DNA from: a virus
Virus record (IMG/VR): IMGVR_UViG_3300046318_000681
Coordinates: 1-33,028 of that record
DNA length: 33,028 bases
Strand: one strand, 5' to 3'
A program made the position numbers and the translations under genes. This document shows positions 2,590 to 22,731 of this stretch, in pieces; position 1 is the stretch's first letter, and each line of letters opens with the position of its first letter. The notes below the pieces were generated by a model. That model was not told the DNA's origin and searched no databases. It was given only the letters and a program-made list of their open reading frames with translations.

Positions 2590-4575
2590 ATGATTAAGAA
2601 AGAGAGAATTTTTGAATTAAAAATTGAAGAGGATGATGAGTTATCAGGAATCGATTCAATATCATTGGTATCTGAACCGGCAATAGAAATCAATTGGTTA
2701 GCATTTAATAGAGAGTGTCAAGACGGTTGCGGTTTAAGCCACGATTTTTCTTCAGATGACCATAGATATGTCGAGCACATAATGACGAACGCAGAGACCG
2801 AGGAAGACCTGTTTAACGATGGATGGGTTGTTGATTCTTTTGAGATAGTTACCGGCAAAGAAAACTTTGTAAGCACAGAACCAAATGCTCCATCAATTGA
2901 AGATGAAGAAGAATATAAGGTAAGATACAAATATGTATTAAATCCATTGATTGACGGTCCTGCAATTATATCAACATCAAGAGCATTTTGTAGAGAACTT
3001 ATCGCACAAAATAAAGTATTTAGAATAGAGGATATTGAGAACGCAACAAACGATTATGGTCAATCTCCTTTGGTATATAGAAACTCGTGGAACTGCCGTC
3101 ACGTATGGCAAAGAATTAAGTATAGAAAAGATGCTGATATCATTAACAAAGCATCTGTCAATAAAGGTAAAGTAACCATTGCCGGTTTTCCAAATGATTT
3201 GGCTGACCCTGATTATAGAGTATTAGGTTACGACCAAGCAAATACTGCAACAAATAAAACAAAAGGTAATCCATCACCAAGAACTGAAAGAACTTTAGGT
3301 GGTATGCTAACACAAGGTGCCACTTTAAGTTTATCAAAAGATAAGTTTCAAGAAGAATGTCCTGAAGCAACACAGAACGTGGCTGTTAATTTAGAGAACA
3401 GACAGAGAGCAATTAATGAAGCACATTATGGTCCATTAAATCCTAATGAACCAAATGAGGAATATTGGAAAGCAAAAGCAAAGATGTTTAACGGTGATGT
3501 TGAATCAGCAAAGAAAGCAAGATGTGGAAACTGTGCATTCTTTGTTAAGACACCAAGTATGTTAGAATGTATTGCCGGTGGAATAAATGATGTAAATGAA
3601 TTGGATACCATTCAAGCCGCAGACTTAGGTTACTGTGAAGCATTTGATTTTAAATGTGCTGCAGCAAGAACTTGTGATGCTTGGGTTGTTGGTGGACCAA
3701 TTGTTGAAGAAAACTTAGGATATGACGTTTCTGCTTTACCTGCTTATAAGGATGAATTACCAACCGGTAAAACGGAGAGTTTTGAAAGTTATACTGATTA
3801 TCCTGAAGGTGCTAAGAACAATGCAAAGAGAGCATTAGATTGGGCGGAAAAGAATGGTTGGGGTTCTTGTGGAACACCTGTTGGAAAAGCAAGAGCAAAC
3901 CAACTTGCTAAGGGTGAAGCCATTTCAGAGGAAACGATTGCTCGTATGGCATCATTTGCAAGACACGCACAGAATAAAGATGTGCCATATTCAGAAGGAT
4001 GTGGTGGTCTTATGTGGGATGCTTGGGGTGGTACATCGGGAATTGAATGGGCTCAAAACAAATTAGAAAGAATTAGAAAAGAAAAGATGTCCAAGCAGAA
4101 GTTTGCGGCAACTGATGAAGAAAAAAGAATTGTGATTGGACCTGCAATGGTTCCACATCAAAAAATCATACGCAAAGATAAAATTACCGGTGAACCATAT
4201 TATGTATTCTTTTCTCCTGATACAATTAAAATGATTGCCGATAAGTATATGAAAAATCAGTACACACGTAACAACGATACTGAACACGATGGTAAAGCTG
4301 TCAATGATATATATGTAACGGAGTCTTGGATTGTTGAAGATGAGCGATACGATAAATCAAAGAAATATGGTTTTGAAGTACCGGTTGGTTCTTGGATGGT
4401 TGCAATGAAAATACCAAAAACACCAAAGGGTGAAGAGGTATGGCAGAAGATTAAAGCCGGTGAATTGAATGGCTTCTCCGTTAGCGGTTACTTTGAAGAG
4501 GTAGCCAAATTTAGTAGAGAAGAAATGTTCTTGTTTAAATTGGAACAAATACTAAAGGAAACTGGTAATAACTAA
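2590..4575 (+). CDS. Multidomain prohead protease (XkdF-like) fusion
   Basis: 661 aa, long for a head maturation protease because several modules are joined. Residues 15-40 hold the SLVSEPAIE motif common at the start of XkdF-like proteins. Around 130-175 lies a FCREL ... NCRHVWQ segment like those in Mu F-type head morphogenesis proteins. Around 310-380 is a Cys-rich module (CGNCAFF, GYCEAF, CAAARTCDAW), possibly metal-binding. Around 400-490 is a helical module with KRALDWAEKNGWG and RMASFARHAQ, which I know from proteases and capsid proteins of other phages. The C-terminus from about 510 matches the XkdF serine protease domain; His in NDTEHDGK (about 565) and Ser in GFSVSGYF (about 628) are candidate catalytic residues. 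It is followed by scaffold and capsid genes, as expected. Protease role is likely; the roles of the other modules are inferred. Confidence 0.72.
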   Translation: MIKKERIFELKIEEDDELSGIDSISLVSEPAIEINWLAFNRECQDGCGLSHDFSSDDHRYVEHIMTNAETEEDLFNDGWVVDSFEIVTGKENFVSTEPNAPSIEDEEEYKVRYKYVLNPLIDGPAIISTSRAFCRELIAQNKVFRIEDIENATNDYGQSPLVYRNSWNCRHVWQRIKYRKDADIINKASVNKGKVTIAGFPNDLADPDYRVLGYDQANTATNKTKGNPSPRTERTLGGMLTQGATLSLSKDKFQEECPEATQNVAVNLENRQRAINEAHYGPLNPNEPNEEYWKAKAKMFNGDVESAKKARCGNCAFFVKTPSMLECIAGGINDVNELDTIQAADLGYCEAFDFKCAAARTCDAWVVGGPIVEENLGYDVSALPAYKDELPTGKTESFESYTDYPEGAKNNAKRALDWAEKNGWGSCGTPVGKARANQLAKGEAISEETIARMASFARHAQNKDVPYSEGCGGLMWDAWGGTSGIEWAQNKLERIRKEKMSKQKFAATDEEKRIVIGPAMVPHQKIIRKDKITGEPYYVFFSPDTIKMIADKYMKNQYTRNNDTEHDGKAVNDIYVTESWIVEDERYDKSKKYGFEVPVGSWMVAMKIPKTPKGEEVWQKIKAGELNGFSVSGYFEEVAKFSREEMFLFKLEQILKETGNN

Positions 4576-7529: not shown

Positions 7530-8882
7530 ATGAGCGAAGAAAAAGAAAAACCAAAATACGCCTTAAGCAAACAAACATTCACACAGGAACCGTTCTTACC
7601 GGTATTCAGTGAGATATTCAACAACAGACAACCTTGGGTTAGTTATGGTGAAAATAATATGATGCCAAATTATCTATTAAGCAGATATCAAAACTGTGCT
7701 ATACATAAGGCAATCATTACAAGTAAGAAAGAACAAATATTAGGTGACGGATTGGTCTCGGAGAATAATCCAATGGCAACTGTTAACCTAATCAATAAGA
7801 AAGAAAACGTAACTGAGGTTATGGCAAAGTGCGCATTGGACCTTGTATTATTTGGTGGATATGCATTAAATGTAATATGGACAAGAGATAAGCAATCAAT
7901 CGCTGAAATTTATCACGTTGACTTCTCAAGAGTTAGATGTGCCAAAGTTAATATGGACACCGATGAGGTTGATAGATATTACTACTCAGCAGATTGGGGT
8001 AATTGGAAAAAGTTTGGTGTTGAAGAATATCCGGCATTTTCACAAGATGCATCAGAAGCATCTCAAATCTATTACTACAAGCAATATGTACCATCACAGT
8101 TTTACTATCCTCAACCTGATTATTCAGGAGCATTAGCTGCAATTGAGATAGATGTAAATATCAAGGAATTCCACGCAAATAATCTTAAGAATGGTATGTT
8201 ACCATCTTTATGGATTGACTTCGTAAACGGTATACCGGGTGAAGAAGAGCAAAGACTTATCACACGTGGTCTTGAAGAACAATACTCATCAGTTAATAAT
8301 GCCGGTAGACCAATTGTATCATTCAATGAGTCAATAGAATTATCACCACGTATCACACAGATTGCTCCATCAGGAAACGATGGATACTACTCAACTATCT
8401 ATGAGGATATTGTACGTACAATCTTATCAGGACATAGAGTTTCATCAGGTGAGTTATTTGGTATTAGCACAGCTAACAAATTGGGTTCTAAAGATGAAAT
8501 CGATACACACATTATGTACTTCAGACGTACCGTAATTGAACCATATCAAAAAGAATTATTAAGAACATTTGATAAGTTGGTATCAATGAAATTTGAGAAA
8601 CCAACCACATTCCAAATCAAACCAATGACAATCTACGAGAGTGGTGATATCGTTCAGAATCCTTCGGTTGTAGATACGCCTGTAACACCGGTGGAAGCAT
8701 CTGCAGTTAATGAGAATATCAAAGCTTTAAAAGGTAGAGAATACCAAGCATTGATGAGAATAGTTCGTGAGTACAACAAAGAAAAAATAACAAGAGAGCA
8801 AGCAATGCAAATGTTAATGAGTGGATATGGTCTATCTCAAGATGAGTGTAGTGCGTGGCTTGGAGAAGAAGAAATTGACTAA
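7530..8882 (+). CDS. Portal protein
   Basis: 450 aa. It forms the dodecameric ring at the capsid vertex through which DNA is packaged and to which the tail connects. Portal-like traits are the early SRYQNCAIHKAIITSKKEQILGDG region (45-75), the FGGYALNVIW segment (about 109-118), the LKNGMLPSLWIDF segment and the later GELFGIST...LGSKDEIDTHIMYFRR helix region, all matching portals of this host group. The C-terminal 60 residues are a charged helix-turn-helix-like tail. Unusually, it comes after the capsid gene and far from the terminases. It is followed by a head-tail adaptor. Confidence 0.78.
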   Translation: MSEEKEKPKYALSKQTFTQEPFLPVFSEIFNNRQPWVSYGENNMMPNYLLSRYQNCAIHKAIITSKKEQILGDGLVSENNPMATVNLINKKENVTEVMAKCALDLVLFGGYALNVIWTRDKQSIAEIYHVDFSRVRCAKVNMDTDEVDRYYYSADWGNWKKFGVEEYPAFSQDASEASQIYYYKQYVPSQFYYPQPDYSGALAAIEIDVNIKEFHANNLKNGMLPSLWIDFVNGIPGEEEQRLITRGLEEQYSSVNNAGRPIVSFNESIELSPRITQIAPSGNDGYYSTIYEDIVRTILSGHRVSSGELFGISTANKLGSKDEIDTHIMYFRRTVIEPYQKELLRTFDKLVSMKFEKPTTFQIKPMTIYESGDIVQNPSVVDTPVTPVEASAVNENIKALKGREYQALMRIVREYNKEKITREQAMQMLMSGYGLSQDECSAWLGEEEID

Positions 8883-9966: not shown

Positions 9967-10293
9967 ATGAATAAGATTGAAATGATTAGACGCATTAAGT
10001 TAGAACTTAGCGGTGTTAAAAAAACTAAAATGGAAGAAGGTGGATTAGAAAACGCGTGTTGGGATGGCTACCAACCAATTGGTACGAAGATAACAGAAGA
10101 TGGTAGAGAAGTACCAAACTGTGTACCAATCAAAGAAGAACAATCCAAAATAAAAGAAGGATTTCCAATACCATCACCATCCGGTGATGAAGATGAGCAA
10201 GCATACATCTCAAGATGTATTTCAAATATTATTGATGAATATGGACAAGAGCAAGCAGCAGCTATCTGTTACAACAGATGGGAAAATAAGTAA
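9967..10293 (+). CDS. Small phage protein with VPNCVP and ICYNRWE motifs
   Basis: 108 aa. Two motifs occur widely in phage structural proteins: GTKITEDGREVPNCVPIK (about 39-56) and a C-terminal block FPIPSPSGDEDEQAYISRC ... EQAAAICYNRWE. The second usually lies at the end of head proteases or neighbouring head genes; here the two motifs form a free-standing protein at the end of the portal operon. The role is unknown. The same frame continues past the TAA for 25 sense codons that encode a Cys/His pattern (see 10294-10371). Confidence 0.5.
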   Translation: MNKIEMIRRIKLELSGVKKTKMEEGGLENACWDGYQPIGTKITEDGREVPNCVPIKEEQSKIKEGFPIPSPSGDEDEQAYISRCISNIIDEYGQEQAAAICYNRWENK

Positions 10294-10371
10294 ACTATAC
10301 CTCTTGACTGCGAGAATTGTCACCGGTTGGATTATAATTGCTTTAACCATACAATGTATCCAACTCTATAA
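10294..10371 (+). other. In-frame Cys/His-coding extension after a stop
   Basis: Directly after the TAA of the 108-aa gene the same frame reads TIPLDCENCHRLDYNCFNH and on to a second TAA. C-x-x-C ... C-x-x-H is a zinc-knuckle-like pattern. There is no ATG, GTG or TTG in frame ahead of the first Cys, so expression would need read-through or a rare start. It may be the remnant of a gene cut short by the stop. Confidence 0.25.
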
Positions 10372-10390
10372 AATAATGTCTTAAAACGAA

Positions 10391-10419
10391 AAACCCTATC
10401 CTTAAAAAAGATAGGGTTT
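10391..10419. terminator. Bidirectional terminator hairpin
   Basis: AAACCCTATC, 9-nt loop, GATAGGGTTT: a perfect 10-bp stem between the plus-strand portal operon and the convergent minus-strand genes. On the minus strand the stem runs into TTCGTTTT, on the plus strand into CTACATTT, so it can serve both sides and is stronger on the minus strand. Confidence 0.75.
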
Positions 10420-10506
10420 CTACATTTATGCTTTCTATTTATTATGATGTGTAAACTAATCTAATGGCAGTAAGAAAAACCACATCACATAACAATAATA
10501 TATAAT

Positions 10507-10905
10507 TTAATTTGGATTGTCAAGTATTCTTAAACTTGTCCTTATCCTTGTATCACCGGAATAATCATTAAAGACCTCGTGAACAAAATAATTATTATCA
10601 CATAGGTATCTCATTAATGTTTGTTCATTATCTCTTTGATAACGTTCAAATGCATTTGGTGGACCAATACCGTCCATAACATCTTGACTAATGACAGATT
10701 CAACTCTTATAACATTTGTATCAAACGTTGAAGAATATCTTTGAACAGTTTCATTTAACTCCTCATTTCTTATTGTTAGAGTTTCAATGTAATCTTGCAA
10801 ATCGTTAATCCTTTCCCATAGCGGTTGATAGTTACAATCACTTGAGTCGGGATAAGCGTGTGTTCCATCATTAGGATGGAAGAACATCCATCTCTTTACT
10901 CTCAT
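10507..10905 (-). CDS. Hypothetical minus-strand protein (132 aa)
   Basis: Starts MRVKRWMFFHPNDGTHAYPD. A predicted coiled coil lies at about 28-58 (PLWERINDLQDYIETLTIRNEELNET), and the C-terminus has an alpha/beta look (YLCDNNYFVHEVFNDYSG). I do not recognise the family. With the upstream 49-aa gene it is the only minus-strand transcription unit, driven by the promoter at 11047-11077. Its position beside the operator-like region suggests a control or early role, but nothing in the sequence proves DNA binding. Confidence 0.6.
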   Translation of the reverse strand: MRVKRWMFFHPNDGTHAYPDSSDCNYQPLWERINDLQDYIETLTIRNEELNETVQRYSSTFDTNVIRVESVISQDVMDGIGPPNAFERYQRDNEQTLMRYLCDNNYFVHEVFNDYSGDTRIRTSLRILDNPN

Positions 10906-11020
10906 ATTTTTCTTCGTTTACCGGTTCATCTTCCATTGATATTGGATATAACATTTCTGTTAAATCAACAATGGAATACATTTCTTGCATTTCAATAAGT
11001 AATTCTTTAATTGATGACAT
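10871..11020 (-). CDS. Small acidic protein (49 aa)
   Basis: ATG at 11020 reading leftwards; product begins MSSIKELLIEMQEMYSIVDL and ends KEMDVLPS. It is acidic and helical. Its 3' end overlaps the start of the 132-aa gene by 35 bases, a sign of translational coupling. It is the first gene behind the minus-strand promoter, with a 5' leader of roughly 20 nt. Function unknown. Confidence 0.5.
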   Translation of the reverse strand: MSSIKELLIEMQEMYSIVDLTEMLYPISMEDEPVNEEKYESKEMDVLPS

Positions 11021-16423: not shown

Positions 16424-17749
16424 ATGCCTGATATTAAGTTAAGTAAAAGACAGACAGAGTGTTGGGAATATATCTTTGACAATAAAACATCGGAGATATG
16501 TTTCGGTGGTGGTGTATCCGGCGGTAAGAGTTATCTATTATGTCTATCAATTGCAACGATGGCAATACAAAATGCCGGTACAAGATACATCTTAGGACGT
16601 TCTGTATTGCACACACTAAAACAAACCACGTTGGTAACCCTATTCCAAGTATTAAAGGATATGGGATTATCACCGGACAAACACTTTACATATAATGGTC
16701 AAGACAATACCGTTAAGTTATTCAATGAATCAATCATTATCTTAAAGAACTTAGAGTATACACCCTCAGACCCAAACTATGAAAGACTACAAGGTTATGA
16801 AGTTACTGCCGTTGGTGTGGATGAAGCTTCACAAATATCAGAGACTTGTTATAATATTCTTAAGTCAAGGATAAGATACAAGCTAACTGATTATAATTTA
16901 ATACCTAAGATTATACTAACCTGTAATCCCGGTAACAATTACATCAAACGTATATTCTATATACCATTCCAAGAGAATAATCTACCGGAGAGCAAAGTAT
17001 TCATTCAATCACTAATCACAGACAACCCATATGTTAGTCAAGATTATATTGATATGTTACAGACCTTACCGGCAGAACAAAAGAAAAGATTGCTCTATGG
17101 TGATTGGTTCTTTACAGATGAGATTGGTAAGCTATTTGACTATGATGATATCGTTGCTTGTTCTTACAAGAACGCACCCAATCCAAATGATAAGAAATAC
17201 ATATCAGTCGATGTGGCCCGATTTGGCAACGATACAAGTATTGCAATTGTATGGGTTGGATTAACTGTGATTGAGATTGTGAGGTATAAGAAGTTGGATA
17301 CCATTGAGTTAAGTAATAATATCAAGGAACTAATTGCCAAGCACGGAATACATCCATCTCAAGTAATTGCAGATAGTGATGGTCTTGGCGCCGGTGTAGT
17401 AGATAACATTAGATGCACACCATTCGTCAATAACTCCTCAGCATTGCACAAACAGAACTTCGCTAACCTAAAGAGTCAAGCGTATGTAAAACTCTCTGAT
17501 ATGGTCAAGGAAGGAAAGATTAGTATTAATGTAATGGATAGTGCAATAGTAGAAGAATTAACACAAGAATTATTAACAGTTAAATTAAAAGATGTTGATA
17601 AAGATAATAAAGTACAAGTTATATCCAAAGACGAACAGAAGAAGATATTAGGAAAATCACCGGACTTAAGTGATGCTTTAATGTTTAGAATGTTTTGGGA
17701 AATAAAAGATATGAAAACAACCGGCAGATATGCCATAGCAAGAATATGA
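16424..17749 (+). CDS. terL: Terminase large subunit
   Basis: 441 aa, normal length. ATPase motor plus headful or site nuclease. Walker A GGGVSGGKS (28-36, K35); Walker B VGVDEAS (D/E near 133-134); coupling motif LTCNPG near 165-170. The RNase H-like nuclease has SVDVARFGND near 261-270, ADSDGLGAG near 315-323 and SPDLSDAL near 413-420, supplying the acidic residues for two metals. All motifs are intact. Its TGA overlaps the ATG of the next gene (ATGA). Confidence 0.95.
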   Translation: MPDIKLSKRQTECWEYIFDNKTSEICFGGGVSGGKSYLLCLSIATMAIQNAGTRYILGRSVLHTLKQTTLVTLFQVLKDMGLSPDKHFTYNGQDNTVKLFNESIIILKNLEYTPSDPNYERLQGYEVTAVGVDEASQISETCYNILKSRIRYKLTDYNLIPKIILTCNPGNNYIKRIFYIPFQENNLPESKVFIQSLITDNPYVSQDYIDMLQTLPAEQKKRLLYGDWFFTDEIGKLFDYDDIVACSYKNAPNPNDKKYISVDVARFGNDTSIAIVWVGLTVIEIVRYKKLDTIELSNNIKELIAKHGIHPSQVIADSDGLGAGVVDNIRCTPFVNNSSALHKQNFANLKSQAYVKLSDMVKEGKISINVMDSAIVEELTQELLTVKLKDVDKDNKVQVISKDEQKKILGKSPDLSDALMFRMFWEIKDMKTTGRYAIARI

Positions 17750-18569
17750 AAGATGTAGAATTTGAATTAAACGGGGTAGAATATAAACTACCGGATTTTA
17801 TAAGTATTGAGAATTATGTTAAAGTTTTCAAGATAAAGGAGATATTCTCTGACAGTTATTTGGCTGCAAAGATATTAAACATAGTTACCGGTGCTCCATT
17901 GGATTTACTATTAGAGGTTAACTATAACAAAATCAATTATTTATCCACATACATTATGGCTTTATTCCCAAAGGATAAACCAAACTTCAAGGATAGATTT
18001 ACATTAAATGGAGTTGATTATGGTTTCCTACCAACTTGGCAAGAAGTATCATTTGCTGAGTACGTAGACTTAGACACATTGATTACCAAGAAAGCTGATG
18101 AGATGTTAGATTACATTCATATCATCACAGCTATTATGTACCGGCCAATTATTAAAGATGATGGTGAGCATAAGTTCAAGATAGAGAAATATGACAGTGA
18201 TACGATGTTAGAGCGAGCAGAGCTCTTTAAAAAACAATTGGATATCAAGTTCTTCTTAGGAGGACAGTTTTTTTTTATTCAATTCGCAAAGAAGTACTTA
18301 GAGCGTTCCCCGGCATCTTCGACTTTGAACCTGACGACGATGGAGCAGCTAAAGATGATGTGGAAATACCGGAGGATAATATGGCTGAGTCTTTTGAACA
18401 AAGATTTGGATGGTTCTCAGTTCTCAATCGAATTACACAAGACGATGTTACAAAGCATACTGCCGTCTTACAAGGCTCCCTTGTGGGAGCGCTTAATCAA
18501 TTATTCTACCTCGTTGAAAAGGACAAGGAAATTGAAAAAAGAATGAAGCAACAAATGAAAACACACTAA
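17746..18569 (+). CDS. Tail-assembly-chaperone-like protein, -1 frameshift
   Basis: From ATG 17746 the frame codes for 177 residues of normal composition (MKDVEFELNGVEYKLPDF ... LFKKQLDIKFFLGGQFFF). Beyond the T9 run at 18268-18276 the same frame stays open to 18546 but uses codons rare in this phage (CGG, AGG, CTG) and gives an unnatural basic product. The -1 frame instead reads FPGIFDFEPDDDGAA, an acidic linker, then FGWFSVLNRITQDDV, LFYLVEKDKEIEKRM, a normal phage-like helical end, to TAA 18569. A -1 shift on the T run joins them into about 274 aa. Gene position after terL and before tail genes, and a two-part frameshifted layout, recall G/GT chaperones. A one-base sequencing error is the main alternative. 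Confidence 0.6.
18268..18276 (+). other. T9 slippery run
   Basis: Nine consecutive T in frame as TTT TTT TTT. It allows -1 ribosomal slippage (T TTT TTT) or RNA polymerase slippage, and is also the type of site at which read assembly errs by one base. Coding signal changes frame exactly here. Confidence 0.65.
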
Positions 18570-18593: not shown

Positions 18594-19607
18594 ATGAGTA
18601 TAACTAATTTTAAACAAATTATTCAAGACCTTAGTGGTATTGCTTACTATCATCCCCAAATCAATTCATTTGGGTTTGGGGATGTTACTCAAATCACTAT
18701 GGACGTTGAGACAAAGCAAGAGCCGGACTATCCGAGAATGTACGTTGTACCGGACACAGTATTGTTAAATCAAAATGCTTTACAGTATAATTTCTCAATC
18801 ATTATCTTAGACCAAGTCAACGATGATTTATCAAATCAAAGCGATGTGATGTCTGATAACTTGGAGATTGTCAAAGATATATTTACAATCTTATATCAAT
18901 CATATACAGCAAGTTTCGGTGGATTCACAAATTACTATGAACCATTATGGTCACCACCGGCAACACCCTTCTTAGAAAGGTTTGAAACCATATTAGGTGG
19001 ATGGACACTGAATGTGACATTGGAGCAACCATTTGATTATAATGTCTGTGTGTTACCAATACAAAACTTGAATTTACCAACATCGGTTAATCTTGTAAAC
19101 TACAAGCAAATATTAAGTGATTTTCAACAGATAGCATTTCATCACGAACAAGTTAATTCATACGGTTATGGTGACATTGAACAATTAACAAATGATATTG
19201 TAACGGAGAGAGAACCGGATTATCCAAGACTCTATGTGGTACCGGCAGATGTAACATTGGCAGAGAATGAAATGATTTATAATTTCCAAGTAATAGTAGC
19301 TGACCAATTGAATAGTGATTTATCAAATCAAAGGGATGTGATGAATGATACACTTGAGATTATTAAGGATTTTTTCACGGTATTATATTTATCAGAGTAT
19401 GAGAGTGAATGGGGAGCAAACGTTATTCCATTTCTTGAAAATTATGAGACAACCTTAGGAGGATGGACAATGAACCTTCAAATAACACAAGCATTTGATT
19501 ACAACAGATGTGATTTACCGGAATTACCATTCGTTACAGCAAATAAGAAATGGTATGAGCTTGCTGAGTTATGGAATCAAATATCAGAAAAATGGAGTAA
19601 AGTATAA
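18594..19607 (+). CDS. Tail completion-like protein, internally duplicated
   Basis: 337 aa made of two similar copies (about 4-155 and 165-310) and a short tail ending in WYELAELWNQISEKW. Shared marks in each copy: NFKQII / NYKQIL, then INSFGFGD / VNSYGYGD, EPDYPRMYVVP / EPDYPRLYVVP, DQVNDDLSNQSDVM / DQLNSDLSNQRDVM, LGGWTLN / LGGWTMN, FDYNVCVLP / FDYNRCDLP. The beta-rich repeat resembles neck or tail terminator proteins that cap the tube. A single copy would be about 150 aa, the usual family size. A duplication could give a pseudo-hexamer from three chains. The function is inferred from place and shape. Confidence 0.55.
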   Translation: MSITNFKQIIQDLSGIAYYHPQINSFGFGDVTQITMDVETKQEPDYPRMYVVPDTVLLNQNALQYNFSIIILDQVNDDLSNQSDVMSDNLEIVKDIFTILYQSYTASFGGFTNYYEPLWSPPATPFLERFETILGGWTLNVTLEQPFDYNVCVLPIQNLNLPTSVNLVNYKQILSDFQQIAFHHEQVNSYGYGDIEQLTNDIVTEREPDYPRLYVVPADVTLAENEMIYNFQVIVADQLNSDLSNQRDVMNDTLEIIKDFFTVLYLSEYESEWGANVIPFLENYETTLGGWTMNLQITQAFDYNRCDLPELPFVTANKKWYELAELWNQISEKWSKV

Positions 19608-19626: not shown

Positions 19627-22600
19627 ATGGGACAATTAACCAATTTATATGTATCACAATCCTACCAAGGATTAATAAAATTAGCGGACAGTACTAACGG
19701 AGTTACAAATACATTACAGTATACTCAAGATGGTAATGGTAACAATCTACCGCTACAAATAAGCGACACACAGGTAAATATTACCGGTTCTTTTACTGTT
19801 AATGGTGTACCTTTTACTAATGGTACGAATGGAACGTCAGGAACATCCGGTGCTAATGGCACATCAGGAAGTTCAGGGTCATCGGGCACAAATGGTATAG
19901 CAGGAACTAATGGAACTGCAGGTTCTTCAGGAAGCAGTGGCTCATCAGGAACCAATGGTGTAACAGGTTCATCAGGTTCTGCCGGTACAAGCGGTTCTTC
20001 GGGAACTAATGGAGCTGCCGGTGTTAATGGTACATCTGGTTCAAGTGGTAGCTCAGGCTCATCAGGAACTGACGGTGCAGCGGGAAGTAGCGGTTCAAGC
20101 GGTAGCAGTGGTTCATCAGGAAGTGCCGGTACTTCAGGTATCTCACCAACATTTGATAGTGGTAGTTATGCAACGACCGGTAGTAATACATTTAATGGAA
20201 CACAGACGATTCAAAGTGGTTCTTTAATTATACGTAATAATAGTGCTGTAATTGAAACAGGTTCAAATGTTAAATTATTTGGTGTAGCTGATTTTAGTGG
20301 ACTTGGTCCATCAACATTACAGTTCCATAGCGGTTCAGATGAGTCATCAAATAGATGGTTAAACTTTCAAGTAGTTCCCGGTGGTAATGGTGACGTAGCA
20401 ATTAGTGACTTCCCAAGTAATAACCACTTTATGTTCTATAGAATGAACGACCATACAATTGAATTTGAAGCACCAATTAAGGGATTAAGTTCTGCACCAT
20501 TAAGTGTTGAAAATGGTATTAGCTTAACAGGTTCAATTGATATTACCGGTGATTATTTAATCAATGGTGTACCTATCTCAAGTAGTACAATCAATACCGG
20601 TTCATTTGCAACAACAGGTTCAAACACATTCAACGGAACACAAACAATTCAAAGTGGTTCATTAAATATTAGACAAAATACATTAAATATTGAAACGGGC
20701 TCATTCATTAAATTGTATGGTGTTCAGAACTTTAGTGGTAGTGGACCGGCAGCAATCCAATTCTATTCAAGCAGTGATGCAACAAGATGGATTAATATGC
20801 AACCTGTACCGGGACCTGGTGATTTAGCGTTCAGTGACTTCCCAACTAATGACCACTTTATGTTCTTGCGTTTAGGTACACACGAAATTGAGTTTGAAGC
20901 ACCATTACGTTCAACAGGTTCAGCACCAATATTAATGAATAGTGGATTAAATATTGGAGGTAATCTTAATCAATATCAAGATGCATTAACTGTAACAGGT
21001 AAGACTTATCTTATTGGTGATGTTAGTGCTGATAGTAATTTATATGTAACAGGTAATTTTAAAGCAAATAATAGTGCAATTATTAGTGGTTCATTCCAAA
21101 CAGATGGAGGAGCAACCTTTGGTAATACTAACGCACAATATAATAGTATTAATATTGTAACAAGTAAAACAACATACCCTGGTAACTTATATAATTCATT
21201 CAATATCGATACTGATAATAATGGAGAATGGAGTGCAGGTTTATATGTGTCAACATACAATTCTTTTGGTTCAGAACCTGCAGTTGGTCTATACGGTGGA
21301 GGAACCGGTAATGCCGGCACAAACAACATTATGGAATCTTATGGTAACTTATTAAGAATTAATAAGAATACTCAAGTAACAGGTTCATTAGGTATCACCG
21401 GTTCTTTAATCGTTAACGGTCTGAATATTACAACAGGAAGTAACGGTACCTCAGGAACATCCGGTGCTAATGGCACATCGGGTTCTTCCGGTTCTTCAGG
21501 AACATCATTCGCATCACCATATGTTGGTAATGTAACAATAACAGGTTCAATCGTTGCAACCAGTGGAATTGCTGATATTGAAGATGCTTATGCAAACATA
21601 AGCGCAAAATCAAATACAGCCGCAGTTGGTGGTGCTTACTATGGTTTATACGTTACAGATACATCTGTAAACGATGGTCCAAACGATGCCGGATTTGTTA
21701 CATCAACATATAACTCTTATGCTGCAACATCATCAATTATATTCGGTGGTGGACCTGGTGGATTTGGAGATGATGGAAGACAAGCAATTGCTTTGGCTGA
21801 TGGTAACATCAAATTCTTAAAGAACGCACAGTTAACCGGTTCATTAAACATTAGCAACAGATTAGAAGTTGTTAATGGTATTACAGGTTCATTACAAGGT
21901 AGTGCATCATTCGCAGTTAATGCCGGTCAATTAGACGGTAAAGACGGTAGTGAATATGCTATTACAGGTTCAAACAATTTTGTTGGTGACCAATATATTA
22001 CCGGTGCATTAAACACCAATGGTGGTGCAACATTTGGTAATACAAATGCTCAATATAACAGTGTAAATATTGTTACAAGTAAAACAACATTCCCTGGTAA
22101 TGTATTCAATTCATTTAATATCGATACAGATAATGGTGGACAATGGAGTGCAGGTATGTACGTATCTGCTTATTCATCATTTGGTTCAGAGCCGTCATTT
22201 GGTATTTACGGTGGTGGTTTAGGTAATGCTGGTACAAATAACATTTTAGAATCATACGGTAACTTAGCAAGAATAAATAAGAACACTGAGGTTACCGGTT
22301 CACTTGGAATTTCAGGTTCATTATATGTTAATGGAGCACAGATTACACCGGGTGGTGCATCATTCCCTTATACAGGTAGTGCGGTGATTACCGGTTCATT
22401 GGTTGTAACAGGTTCAGCATCAGGTAATGTAAATGCATTATCAATTAGTTCTCAAACTGCATCACTTGATTTAAATAATGGTAACTTCTTTACACTTCAA
22501 TTGGTATCAGGTTCAGCAACTCATATATTACCAAGTAATATTAAACCGGGTCAAACTGTTAATCTTAGATTGGCAACAACAGGTAGTGGAACGGTTACAT

Positions 22601-22731
22601 TCCCATCATCTGTTGACCAAGCAAGTGGTTCGTCATATATTCCGACAACCACAACAGGAACTGATATAATAACATTGGTGAGTTTTGATAGTTCAACACT
22701 TTACTTAGCATCTGTAAAAAACTTAGTATAA
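19627..22731 (+). CDS. Collagen-like tail fibre
   Basis: 1034 aa. A short N-terminus (MGQLTNLYVSQSYQG) leads into a Gly-X-Y stretch at about 64-178 (GTS, GSS, GTN triplets), a short second one near 603-626, and two pairs of beta-rich repeats: STGSNTFNGTQTIQSGSL blocks near 183 and 330, and NGGATFGNTNAQYNS ... GSLGITGS blocks near 495 and 800. The end (HILPSNIKPGQTVNLRL, GTVTFPSSV) resembles a trimer-forming beta tip. Collagen-like triplets form thin trimeric stalks, so this is probably a side or central fibre that displays receptor-binding tips. It begins a run of adhesins and is preceded by the micro-ORF at 19611. Confidence 0.8.
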   Translation: MGQLTNLYVSQSYQGLIKLADSTNGVTNTLQYTQDGNGNNLPLQISDTQVNITGSFTVNGVPFTNGTNGTSGTSGANGTSGSSGSSGTNGIAGTNGTAGSSGSSGSSGTNGVTGSSGSAGTSGSSGTNGAAGVNGTSGSSGSSGSSGTDGAAGSSGSSGSSGSSGSAGTSGISPTFDSGSYATTGSNTFNGTQTIQSGSLIIRNNSAVIETGSNVKLFGVADFSGLGPSTLQFHSGSDESSNRWLNFQVVPGGNGDVAISDFPSNNHFMFYRMNDHTIEFEAPIKGLSSAPLSVENGISLTGSIDITGDYLINGVPISSSTINTGSFATTGSNTFNGTQTIQSGSLNIRQNTLNIETGSFIKLYGVQNFSGSGPAAIQFYSSSDATRWINMQPVPGPGDLAFSDFPTNDHFMFLRLGTHEIEFEAPLRSTGSAPILMNSGLNIGGNLNQYQDALTVTGKTYLIGDVSADSNLYVTGNFKANNSAIISGSFQTDGGATFGNTNAQYNSINIVTSKTTYPGNLYNSFNIDTDNNGEWSAGLYVSTYNSFGSEPAVGLYGGGTGNAGTNNIMESYGNLLRINKNTQVTGSLGITGSLIVNGLNITTGSNGTSGTSGANGTSGSSGSSGTSFASPYVGNVTITGSIVATSGIADIEDAYANISAKSNTAAVGGAYYGLYVTDTSVNDGPNDAGFVTSTYNSYAATSSIIFGGGPGGFGDDGRQAIALADGNIKFLKNAQLTGSLNISNRLEVVNGITGSLQGSASFAVNAGQLDGKDGSEYAITGSNNFVGDQYITGALNTNGGATFGNTNAQYNSVNIVTSKTTFPGNVFNSFNIDTDNGGQWSAGMYVSAYSSFGSEPSFGIYGGGLGNAGTNNILESYGNLARINKNTEVTGSLGISGSLYVNGAQITPGGASFPYTGSAVITGSLVVTGSASGNVNALSISSQTASLDLNNGNFFTLQLVSGSATHILPSNIKPGQTVNLRLATTGSGTVTFPSSVDQASGSSYIPTTTTGTDIITLVSFDSSTLYLASVKNLV
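20161..20960 (+). repeat. Tandem fibre repeat A (two copies)
   Basis: Copies at about 20161-20540 and 20600-20960 share the coding for NTFNGTQTIQSGSL, an SGxGP or LGPSxxQFHS strip, DFPSNNHFMF / DFPTNDHFMF and IEFEAP. Probably a duplicated beta-helical module of the fibre. Confidence 0.65.
21100..22335 (+). repeat. Fibre repeat B (two copies, separated)
   Basis: Copies at about 21100-21410 and 22010-22335 both code for ATFGNTNAQYNS, NIVTSKTT, FNSFNIDTDN, SAGxYVS, FGSEP, GNAGTNNIxESYGNL and INKN. Nucleotide identity is visibly lower than protein identity, so the duplication is old or under selection. Confidence 0.65.

What the first reader, a model, noticed from the sequence alone, without database searches (positions are those of the whole stretch)
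18268..18276. Coding frame changes by -1 at a T9 run in a chaperone-like gene
Before the run, frame 1 has normal codons and protein composition. After it, frame 1 turns to rare codons and an odd basic product, while the -1 frame gives an acidic linker and a helical domain (FGWFSVLNRITQDDV) of natural type ending at 18569. The unshifted frame stays open for a further 90 codons, so both products could exist. Position between terL and tail genes matches tail assembly chaperones, where programmed frameshifts are the rule; a poly-T run also permits transcriptional slippage.
Basis: partly seen in the sequence, partly recalled or inferred. Interest (0 to 1): 0.6.

Follow-up and report, generated by a model that had tools for sequence, protein, structure and literature searches.

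The report
Phage gene with two overlapping endings
A virus of Bacteroidota bacteria keeps a run of nine T's inside a probable tail-building gene so that some messages shift frame there, giving two proteins with the same front and two different tails written in the same stretch of DNA; the run and both tails are conserved in hundreds of related phages.

Summary
In 276 related phage loci (149 clusters, down to about 20-25% protein identity), 6 bacterial-genome loci and the isolated Nonlabens phages P12024L/S, the gene changes frame by -1 at a T run at the same place, always at least 9 T (128 clusters T9, 20 T10, 1 T12). No unbroken relative was found. The run sits in all three codon phases yet never drops below 9, although the ribosomal heptamer T_TTT_TTT would need only 8 (phase 1) or 7 (phase 2); this points to RNA polymerase slippage rather than, or on top of, ribosomal slipping. 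No RNA-structure or regular Shine-Dalgarno-like signal was seen. It stays open 68-99 codons where 14 are expected, and synonymous change in the -1 frame is halved exactly over its length and recovers at its stop. So the gene makes two isoforms: a shared 177-aa domain plus a 0-frame tail (89 aa here) or a -1 tail (97 aa). A tail-assembly-chaperone role is likely (weak HK97 chaperone fold match, tape measure gene in the genome) but not proven; no RNA or protein data exist.

The parts
17746..18276 (+). Shared N-terminal domain (177 codons, ATG 17746; overlaps the terL stop)
   Evidence: ORF; AF2 pLDDT mostly 92-98 over residues 11-180; conserved in 276 loci
18268..18276 (+). T9 run, the frame-change site (contains in-frame T_TTT_TTT)
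   Evidence: at least 9 T in all 276 loci and 149 clusters and in 6 bacterial-genome loci
18277..18546 (+). 0-frame C-terminal tail (89 codons plus TGA), basic, predicted helical; isoform of 266 aa
   Evidence: open far longer than expected; synonymous constraint over this overlap
18276..18569 (+). -1-frame C-terminal tail (97 codons plus TAA): acidic linker and helical FGWF domain; isoform of 274 aa
   Evidence: -1 tail found in all 276 loci by HMM
18277..18543 (+). Dual-coding overlap, both frames under purifying selection
16424..17749 (+). Terminase large subunit, immediately upstream
   Evidence: PHROG terL matches; nearest named phages Flavobacterium phage 11b and Cellulophaga phage phi10:1, 37-40% identity
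74..2437 (+). Probable tape measure protein (5' end cut by the contig start), presumed partner of the chaperone
   Evidence: Read from the translation: coiled coil, hydrophobic segment, Gly-rich C-terminal part; homologous long proteins in five other contigs that carry the gene

Best explanation
This is a programmed, dual-coding gene, most likely for tail assembly. RNA polymerase slips on the T9 run in a fraction of transcripts and adds one U (U10). Those messages are read in the -1 frame; unslipped messages are read in the 0 frame. The phage therefore makes two proteins that share a 177-aa domain but end in two different, overlapping C-terminal tails. By analogy with lambda gpG/gpGT, the pair most likely acts as tail assembly chaperones on the tape measure protein, with one tail recruiting a second tail component. 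Shown by comparison here: the conserved -1 switch (about 0.95 sure), selection on both tails, and the retention of at least 9 T. Inferred: that the polymerase rather than the ribosome slips (about 0.75), the ratio of the two products, and the chaperone role (about 0.7).
For: (1) 276/276 loci (149 clusters; 98 of them from searches with protein patterns that do not involve the run) have the two halves in the -1 relation with T9, T10 or T12 between them; 6/6 in bacterial genomes; same in isolated phages P12024L/S. (2) Scans for two unbroken forms of the junction gave no relative. (3) Run length, not only the heptamer, is kept: phases 0/1/2 occur in 91/55/3 clusters, with about 9 phase changes on the tree, never fewer than 9 T. 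In phase 1 the extra T begins 0-frame codons for Y, F, W, L, C and S, and all 40 Leu codons of the -1 frame there are TTR although TTR is 56% of Leu codons in the same genes. The position starts with T in 40/40 loci with T9 but in 1/15 loci where the run has T's to spare (Fisher 3e-12). (4) No downstream RNA structure (mean z -0.1 and -0.3); Shine-Dalgarno-like motifs in only 16/149. (5) E. coli RNA polymerase slips preferentially on poly(T) of 7 or more (PMC6260861); selection against A/T runs shows at 9 nt in many bacteria (PMC1088944). (6) Both tails selected: 0-frame open 72.6 codons against 14.3 expected (84 clusters); synonymous differences 0.282 upstream, 0.142 in the overlap, 0.279 after the 0-frame stop (ratio 0.50, 95% 0.45-0.56); codons 75-84 change at 0.333 where the 0-frame tail has ended and at 0.111 where it goes on. 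(7) The first ATG in the -1 frame after the run is at median codon 31, none within 10 codons, while -1 conservation starts right at the run: fusion, not internal initiation. (8) Best PDB fold match is the HK97 tail assembly chaperone 2ob9, weak.
Against: No RNA or protein data: neither slipped transcripts nor either product has been seen. T_TTT_TTT is always in frame too, so ribosomal slipping cannot be excluded; the two routes give the same protein. The fold match to the HK97 chaperone is weak (E 0.55, probability 0.44). The tape measure gene is not adjacent, as it normally is for G/GT genes. P12024-like phages have a 0-frame tail of only 16-25 codons, with no significant openness. Clusters are not fully independent, and on supported branches only 2 independent pairs remain for the compensation test.
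Confidence: 0.72

Rival explanations
1. Classical -1 ribosomal frameshifting at T_TTT_TTT makes the second isoform; the extra T's are incidental or help the ribosome slip.
For: The heptamer is in frame at every site; tail chaperone genes of other phages use ribosomal -1 shifts (PMC5009743); the two-isoform outcome is the same.
Against: A heptamer needs 8 T in phase 1 and 7 in phase 2, yet 0 of 58 such clusters have fewer than 9; the extra T is kept only when needed to reach 9; no downstream structure or regular Shine-Dalgarno-like signal.
Confidence: 0.22
2. Sequencing or assembly error, or a decayed gene: the true genome has T10 (or T7) and one frame.
For: Homopolymers are error-prone in general.
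Against: Same -1 relation in 276 loci from many metagenomes, in 6 bacterial-genome loci and in two isolated phages; T10 loci are also -1, by compensating changes; both frames under selection.
Confidence: 0.01
3. DNA-level phase variation: replication slippage at the run switches the gene between isoforms in different genomes.
For: Long homopolymers mutate quickly; the run length does vary (9, 10, 12).
Against: No locus was found in the unbroken state; all length variants keep the -1 relation.
Confidence: 0.02
4. Two separate proteins: the -1 reading frame is translated on its own from an internal start.
For: The P12024L record annotates the -1 half as a separate ORF, gp41.
Against: -1-frame conservation begins right at the run, while the first ATG comes at median codon 31 and the first ATG/GTG/TTG at median codon 22; start codons in the short open stretch upstream of the run occur in only 10 of 147 loci.
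Confidence: 0.03

Closest known systems
Lambda gpG/gpGT and HK97-type tail assembly chaperone frameshift (Xu, Hendrix and Duda; reviewed in PMC5009743)
   Same: Two proteins share an N-terminal domain; -1 change inside the coding unit; tailed dsDNA phage; weak fold similarity to the HK97 chaperone
   Different: In lambda the site is near the 3' end of g and the shift is ribosomal; here the 0-frame product carries its own 68-99-codon selected tail that overlaps the -1 tail, the site keeps at least 9 T in any codon phase, and the gene follows terL rather than preceding the tape measure gene
Transcriptional slippage genes: Thermus dnaX (A9), Shigella spa13/mxiE, bacterial IS elements (PMC1088944, PMC5009743)
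   Same: A/T homopolymer of about 9 as the slip site; two products from one gene
   Different: Those end soon after the site or extend one ORF; here both frames are long and both conserved, in a phage assembly gene
Potyvirus P3N-PIPO (PMC4552492)
   Same: Polymerase slippage reaches a long overlapping ORF
   Different: RNA virus replicase and a GAAAAAA site; unrelated protein and host
Nonlabens phage P12024L/P12024S gp40-gp41 (Inhavirus)
   Same: True homologue right after terL, T9, -1 relation
   Different: Annotated as two hypothetical ORFs; 0-frame tail only 25 codons

Membership tests
Phage tail assembly chaperone (G/GT type) | Programmed frame change giving two proteins with a common N-terminal part | tested here: met
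   By comparison: 276/276 loci -1, selection on both tails. Not tested at the bench.
Phage tail assembly chaperone (G/GT type) | Gene lies between major tail protein and tape measure genes | tested here: not met
   Gene follows terL; tape measure gene at 74-2437
Phage tail assembly chaperone (G/GT type) | Unshifted product ends soon after the slip site, shifted product adds a T domain | tested here: not met
   0-frame tail 68-99 codons in group A, about 57 in group B, selected
Phage tail assembly chaperone (G/GT type) | Fold of known chaperones | tested here: inconclusive
   Top PDB match 2ob9 HK97 chaperone, E 0.55, probability 0.44, TM 0.40 of target; two members match a PHROG 'tail protein'; no sequence match in the PDB
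Phage tail assembly chaperone (G/GT type) | Binds tape measure and major tail protein; absent from virions | not testable with these tools
   needs biochemistry
Programmed transcriptional slippage | Conserved A/T run long enough for slippage (about 9), independent of codon phase | tested here: met
Programmed transcriptional slippage | Heterogeneous transcript length at the run | not testable with these tools
   no RNA reads available
Programmed -1 ribosomal frameshifting | Slippery heptamer X_XXY_YYZ in frame | tested here: met
   T_TTT_TTT in frame in every locus, as any T9 would give
Programmed -1 ribosomal frameshifting | Downstream stem-loop or pseudoknot, or upstream Shine-Dalgarno-like stimulator (frequent, not obligatory) | tested here: not met
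   mean structure z -0.1 and -0.3 downstream; Shine-Dalgarno-like in 16/149; pseudoknots were not modelled

The most novel reading that the evidence does not exclude
A large clade of Bacteroidota phages makes its two tail assembly chaperone isoforms by RNA polymerase slippage on an obligatory run of at least nine T, with two alternative C-terminal domains encoded in the same 200-300 bases and both maintained by selection: a dual-coding, transcription-level counterpart of the lambda G/GT switch.
Probability: 0.55. Interest if true: 0.75.

Novelty: new variant of a known kind. Interest (0 to 1): 0.66.

Why it matters
Tail chaperone isoforms set tail assembly in most long-tailed phages, and the switch is described as ribosomal. 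Here a whole phage group seems to set the isoform ratio at transcription, and stores two alternative protein ends in one DNA stretch. It gives a natural test of how run length controls polymerase slippage in Bacteroidota. It also means that gene callers split or truncate this gene: in P12024L the -1 half is recorded as a separate hypothetical ORF.

Tried and rejected
Pfam gave nothing and PHROGs only phrog_32199 (unknown function) plus weak 'tail protein' hits. tblastn of the window protein against annotated phages gave no match; a divergent member was needed to reach the Nonlabens phages. A first structure job on the fused product without an alignment was useless (pLDDT 36). Two loci matching an unbroken-junction pattern are unrelated by HMM and by their reading frames. 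Considered and rejected: sequencing error, pseudogene, DNA phase variation, internal initiation. Flavobacterium phage 6H, a weak structural relative, has no such T run at the end of its N domain and its record seems to need two frame steps there; it was left out of the counts. Other T9+ runs in the loci (15 in 941 kb) fit the decline with length, so no avoidance is claimed. No paper describing this site was found.

Full report
What is there. The gene starts at ATG 17746, overlapping the terL stop codon, and reads CAG TTT TTT TTT ATT at 18265-18279. T9 is at 18268-18276. The unshifted frame continues for 89 codons to a TGA at 18544-18546 (266 aa in all). The -1 frame continues for 97 codons to a TAA at 18567-18569 (274 aa in all). 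A -1 ribosomal shift and one extra U in the message give the same protein, QFFFYSIRKE.

Is it conserved? A first scan found five relatives at 26-91% identity; all five have exactly T9 and the same change of frame. Two wider scans with protein profiles, whose patterns do not involve the run, and one scan with a T9 DNA pattern (biased by design) brought the set to 276 loci with both halves, in 149 clusters, 98 of them from the unbiased searches. All 276 have the second half in the -1 frame. Run length per cluster: T9 in 128, T10 in 20, T12 in 1, never less. Six loci in bacterial genome assemblies (Flavobacterium sp. MFBS3-15; MAGs named Winogradskyella, Flavobacterium, Flavobacteriales, Bacteroidetes and Pseudooceanicola) all have T9. 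The isolated Nonlabens phages P12024L and P12024S carry it too, right after terL, annotated as two hypothetical ORFs. Two pattern scans for an unbroken junction gave no relative. Error, decay and phase variation are therefore rejected.

Both tails are real. Substitution rates in 62 independent pairs of group A sequences (those like the window) show -1 codon position 3, which is 0-frame position 2, at 0.316 upstream, 0.178 in the overlap and 0.309 after the common 0-frame stop. Synonymous differences are 0.282, 0.142 and 0.279; the overlap/upstream ratio is 0.50 (95% 0.45-0.56) and after/upstream 0.99. A second, more distant group B gives 0.271, 0.128 and 0.275. The sharpest test: in codons 75-84 after the run, phages whose 0-frame tail has already ended change at 0.333, those whose tail goes on at 0.111 (453 and 90 codon comparisons). 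Independently, the 0-frame tail is open for 72.6 codons on average (minimum 68) where resampling synonymous -1 codons predicts 14.3 (84 clusters, all with P below 0.05); in group B 58 against 13. Only the P12024-like branch has a short tail (16-25 codons). It is basic in group A (mean net charge +11) but not in group B (-1.9).

Fusion rather than a separate gene. Coding-like conservation of the -1 frame begins at the run, while the first ATG lies at median codon 31 and never within 10 codons.

How the frame changes. Any T9 in any phase contains an in-frame T_TTT_TTT, so the heptamer alone cannot decide. But the heptamer needs only 8 T in phase 1 and 7 in phase 2. The phase has changed about 9 times and the run length about 12 times on the tree, and still none of the 58 phase 1 and 2 clusters has fewer than 9. 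In phase 1 the extra T opens 0-frame codons for six different amino acids and, in the -1 frame, 40 of 40 Leu codons are TTR although TTR is 56% of Leu codons in the same genes; in other conserved Leu columns the TTR fraction ranges from 0.07 to 0.76, and the 0.81 column is this one with the T10 loci included. Where the run already has T's to spare (T10 and T12 loci), the same position starts with C, A or G in 14 of 15 (one of these, L071, is not an inserted Phe). The T is thus kept when needed to reach nine. There is no downstream structure signal and no regular Shine-Dalgarno-like element. E. coli polymerase slips on poly(T) of 7 or more with a strong bias to poly(T) (PMC6260861), insertions rise with run length (PMC5574713), and selection against A/T runs shows at nine in many bacteria (PMC1088944). 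I put polymerase slippage at about 0.75 and ribosomal slipping alone at about 0.22. The +1 frame, which one lost U would give, closes after a median of 7 codons.

What the protein does. AlphaFold2 of the unshifted isoform with 101 sequences gives a confident N-terminal domain (pLDDT mostly 92-98) and a less certain helical tail (57-87). The top PDB match is the HK97 tail assembly chaperone 2ob9, but weakly (E 0.55, probability 0.44). In the viral library the strong matches are unnamed phage proteins and P12024S; weak ones include a T4-like baseplate hub protein and a tape measure chaperone. The window holds a portal, terL and a probable tape measure protein, and five other contigs with this gene also have a relative of the latter. 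A tail assembly chaperone is the best reading, about 0.7; gene order and the long unshifted tail differ from the standard G/GT type, so it is not filed as a plain member.

What is inferred only. The ratio of isoforms, the partner of each tail, and the polymerase as the slipping machine have not been observed. No paper describing this site was found in the library searched.

Noticed in passing
L295 (Flavobacterium phage 6H, KC959568) 10060-10927, minus strand: A weak structural relative of the N domain (R9VW65, 191 aa) stops at ...CFFYSTR*, but natural-looking sequence resumes in the two other frames (VFSIAPDNIL, then YGFYLYFASFQKYL...), as if two frame steps were needed; recoding or record errors, not resolved.
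   Followed up: partly
window 18594-19607: The next gene encodes two tandem copies of a domain of about 150 aa (SFGFGDVTQITMDVETKQEPDYPRMYVVP... and SYGYGDIEQLTNDIVTEREPDYPRLYVVP...).
   Followed up: no
window 19627-22731: 1034-aa protein with long Gly-Ser-Ser/Gly-Thr-Ser collagen-like stretches, probably a tail fibre.
   Followed up: no
window 2590-4572: 661-aa protein matching head maturation protease PHROGs at residues 505-638 and a portal PHROG at 97-198, although a separate portal lies at 7530-8882; a possible fused head gene.
   Followed up: no
L010 contig (G001) 3685-4158 and 37071-39326; L032 contig (G002) 11964-14612 and 44797-46794: Two tape-measure-like genes in one contig, both similar to the window's.
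   Followed up: no
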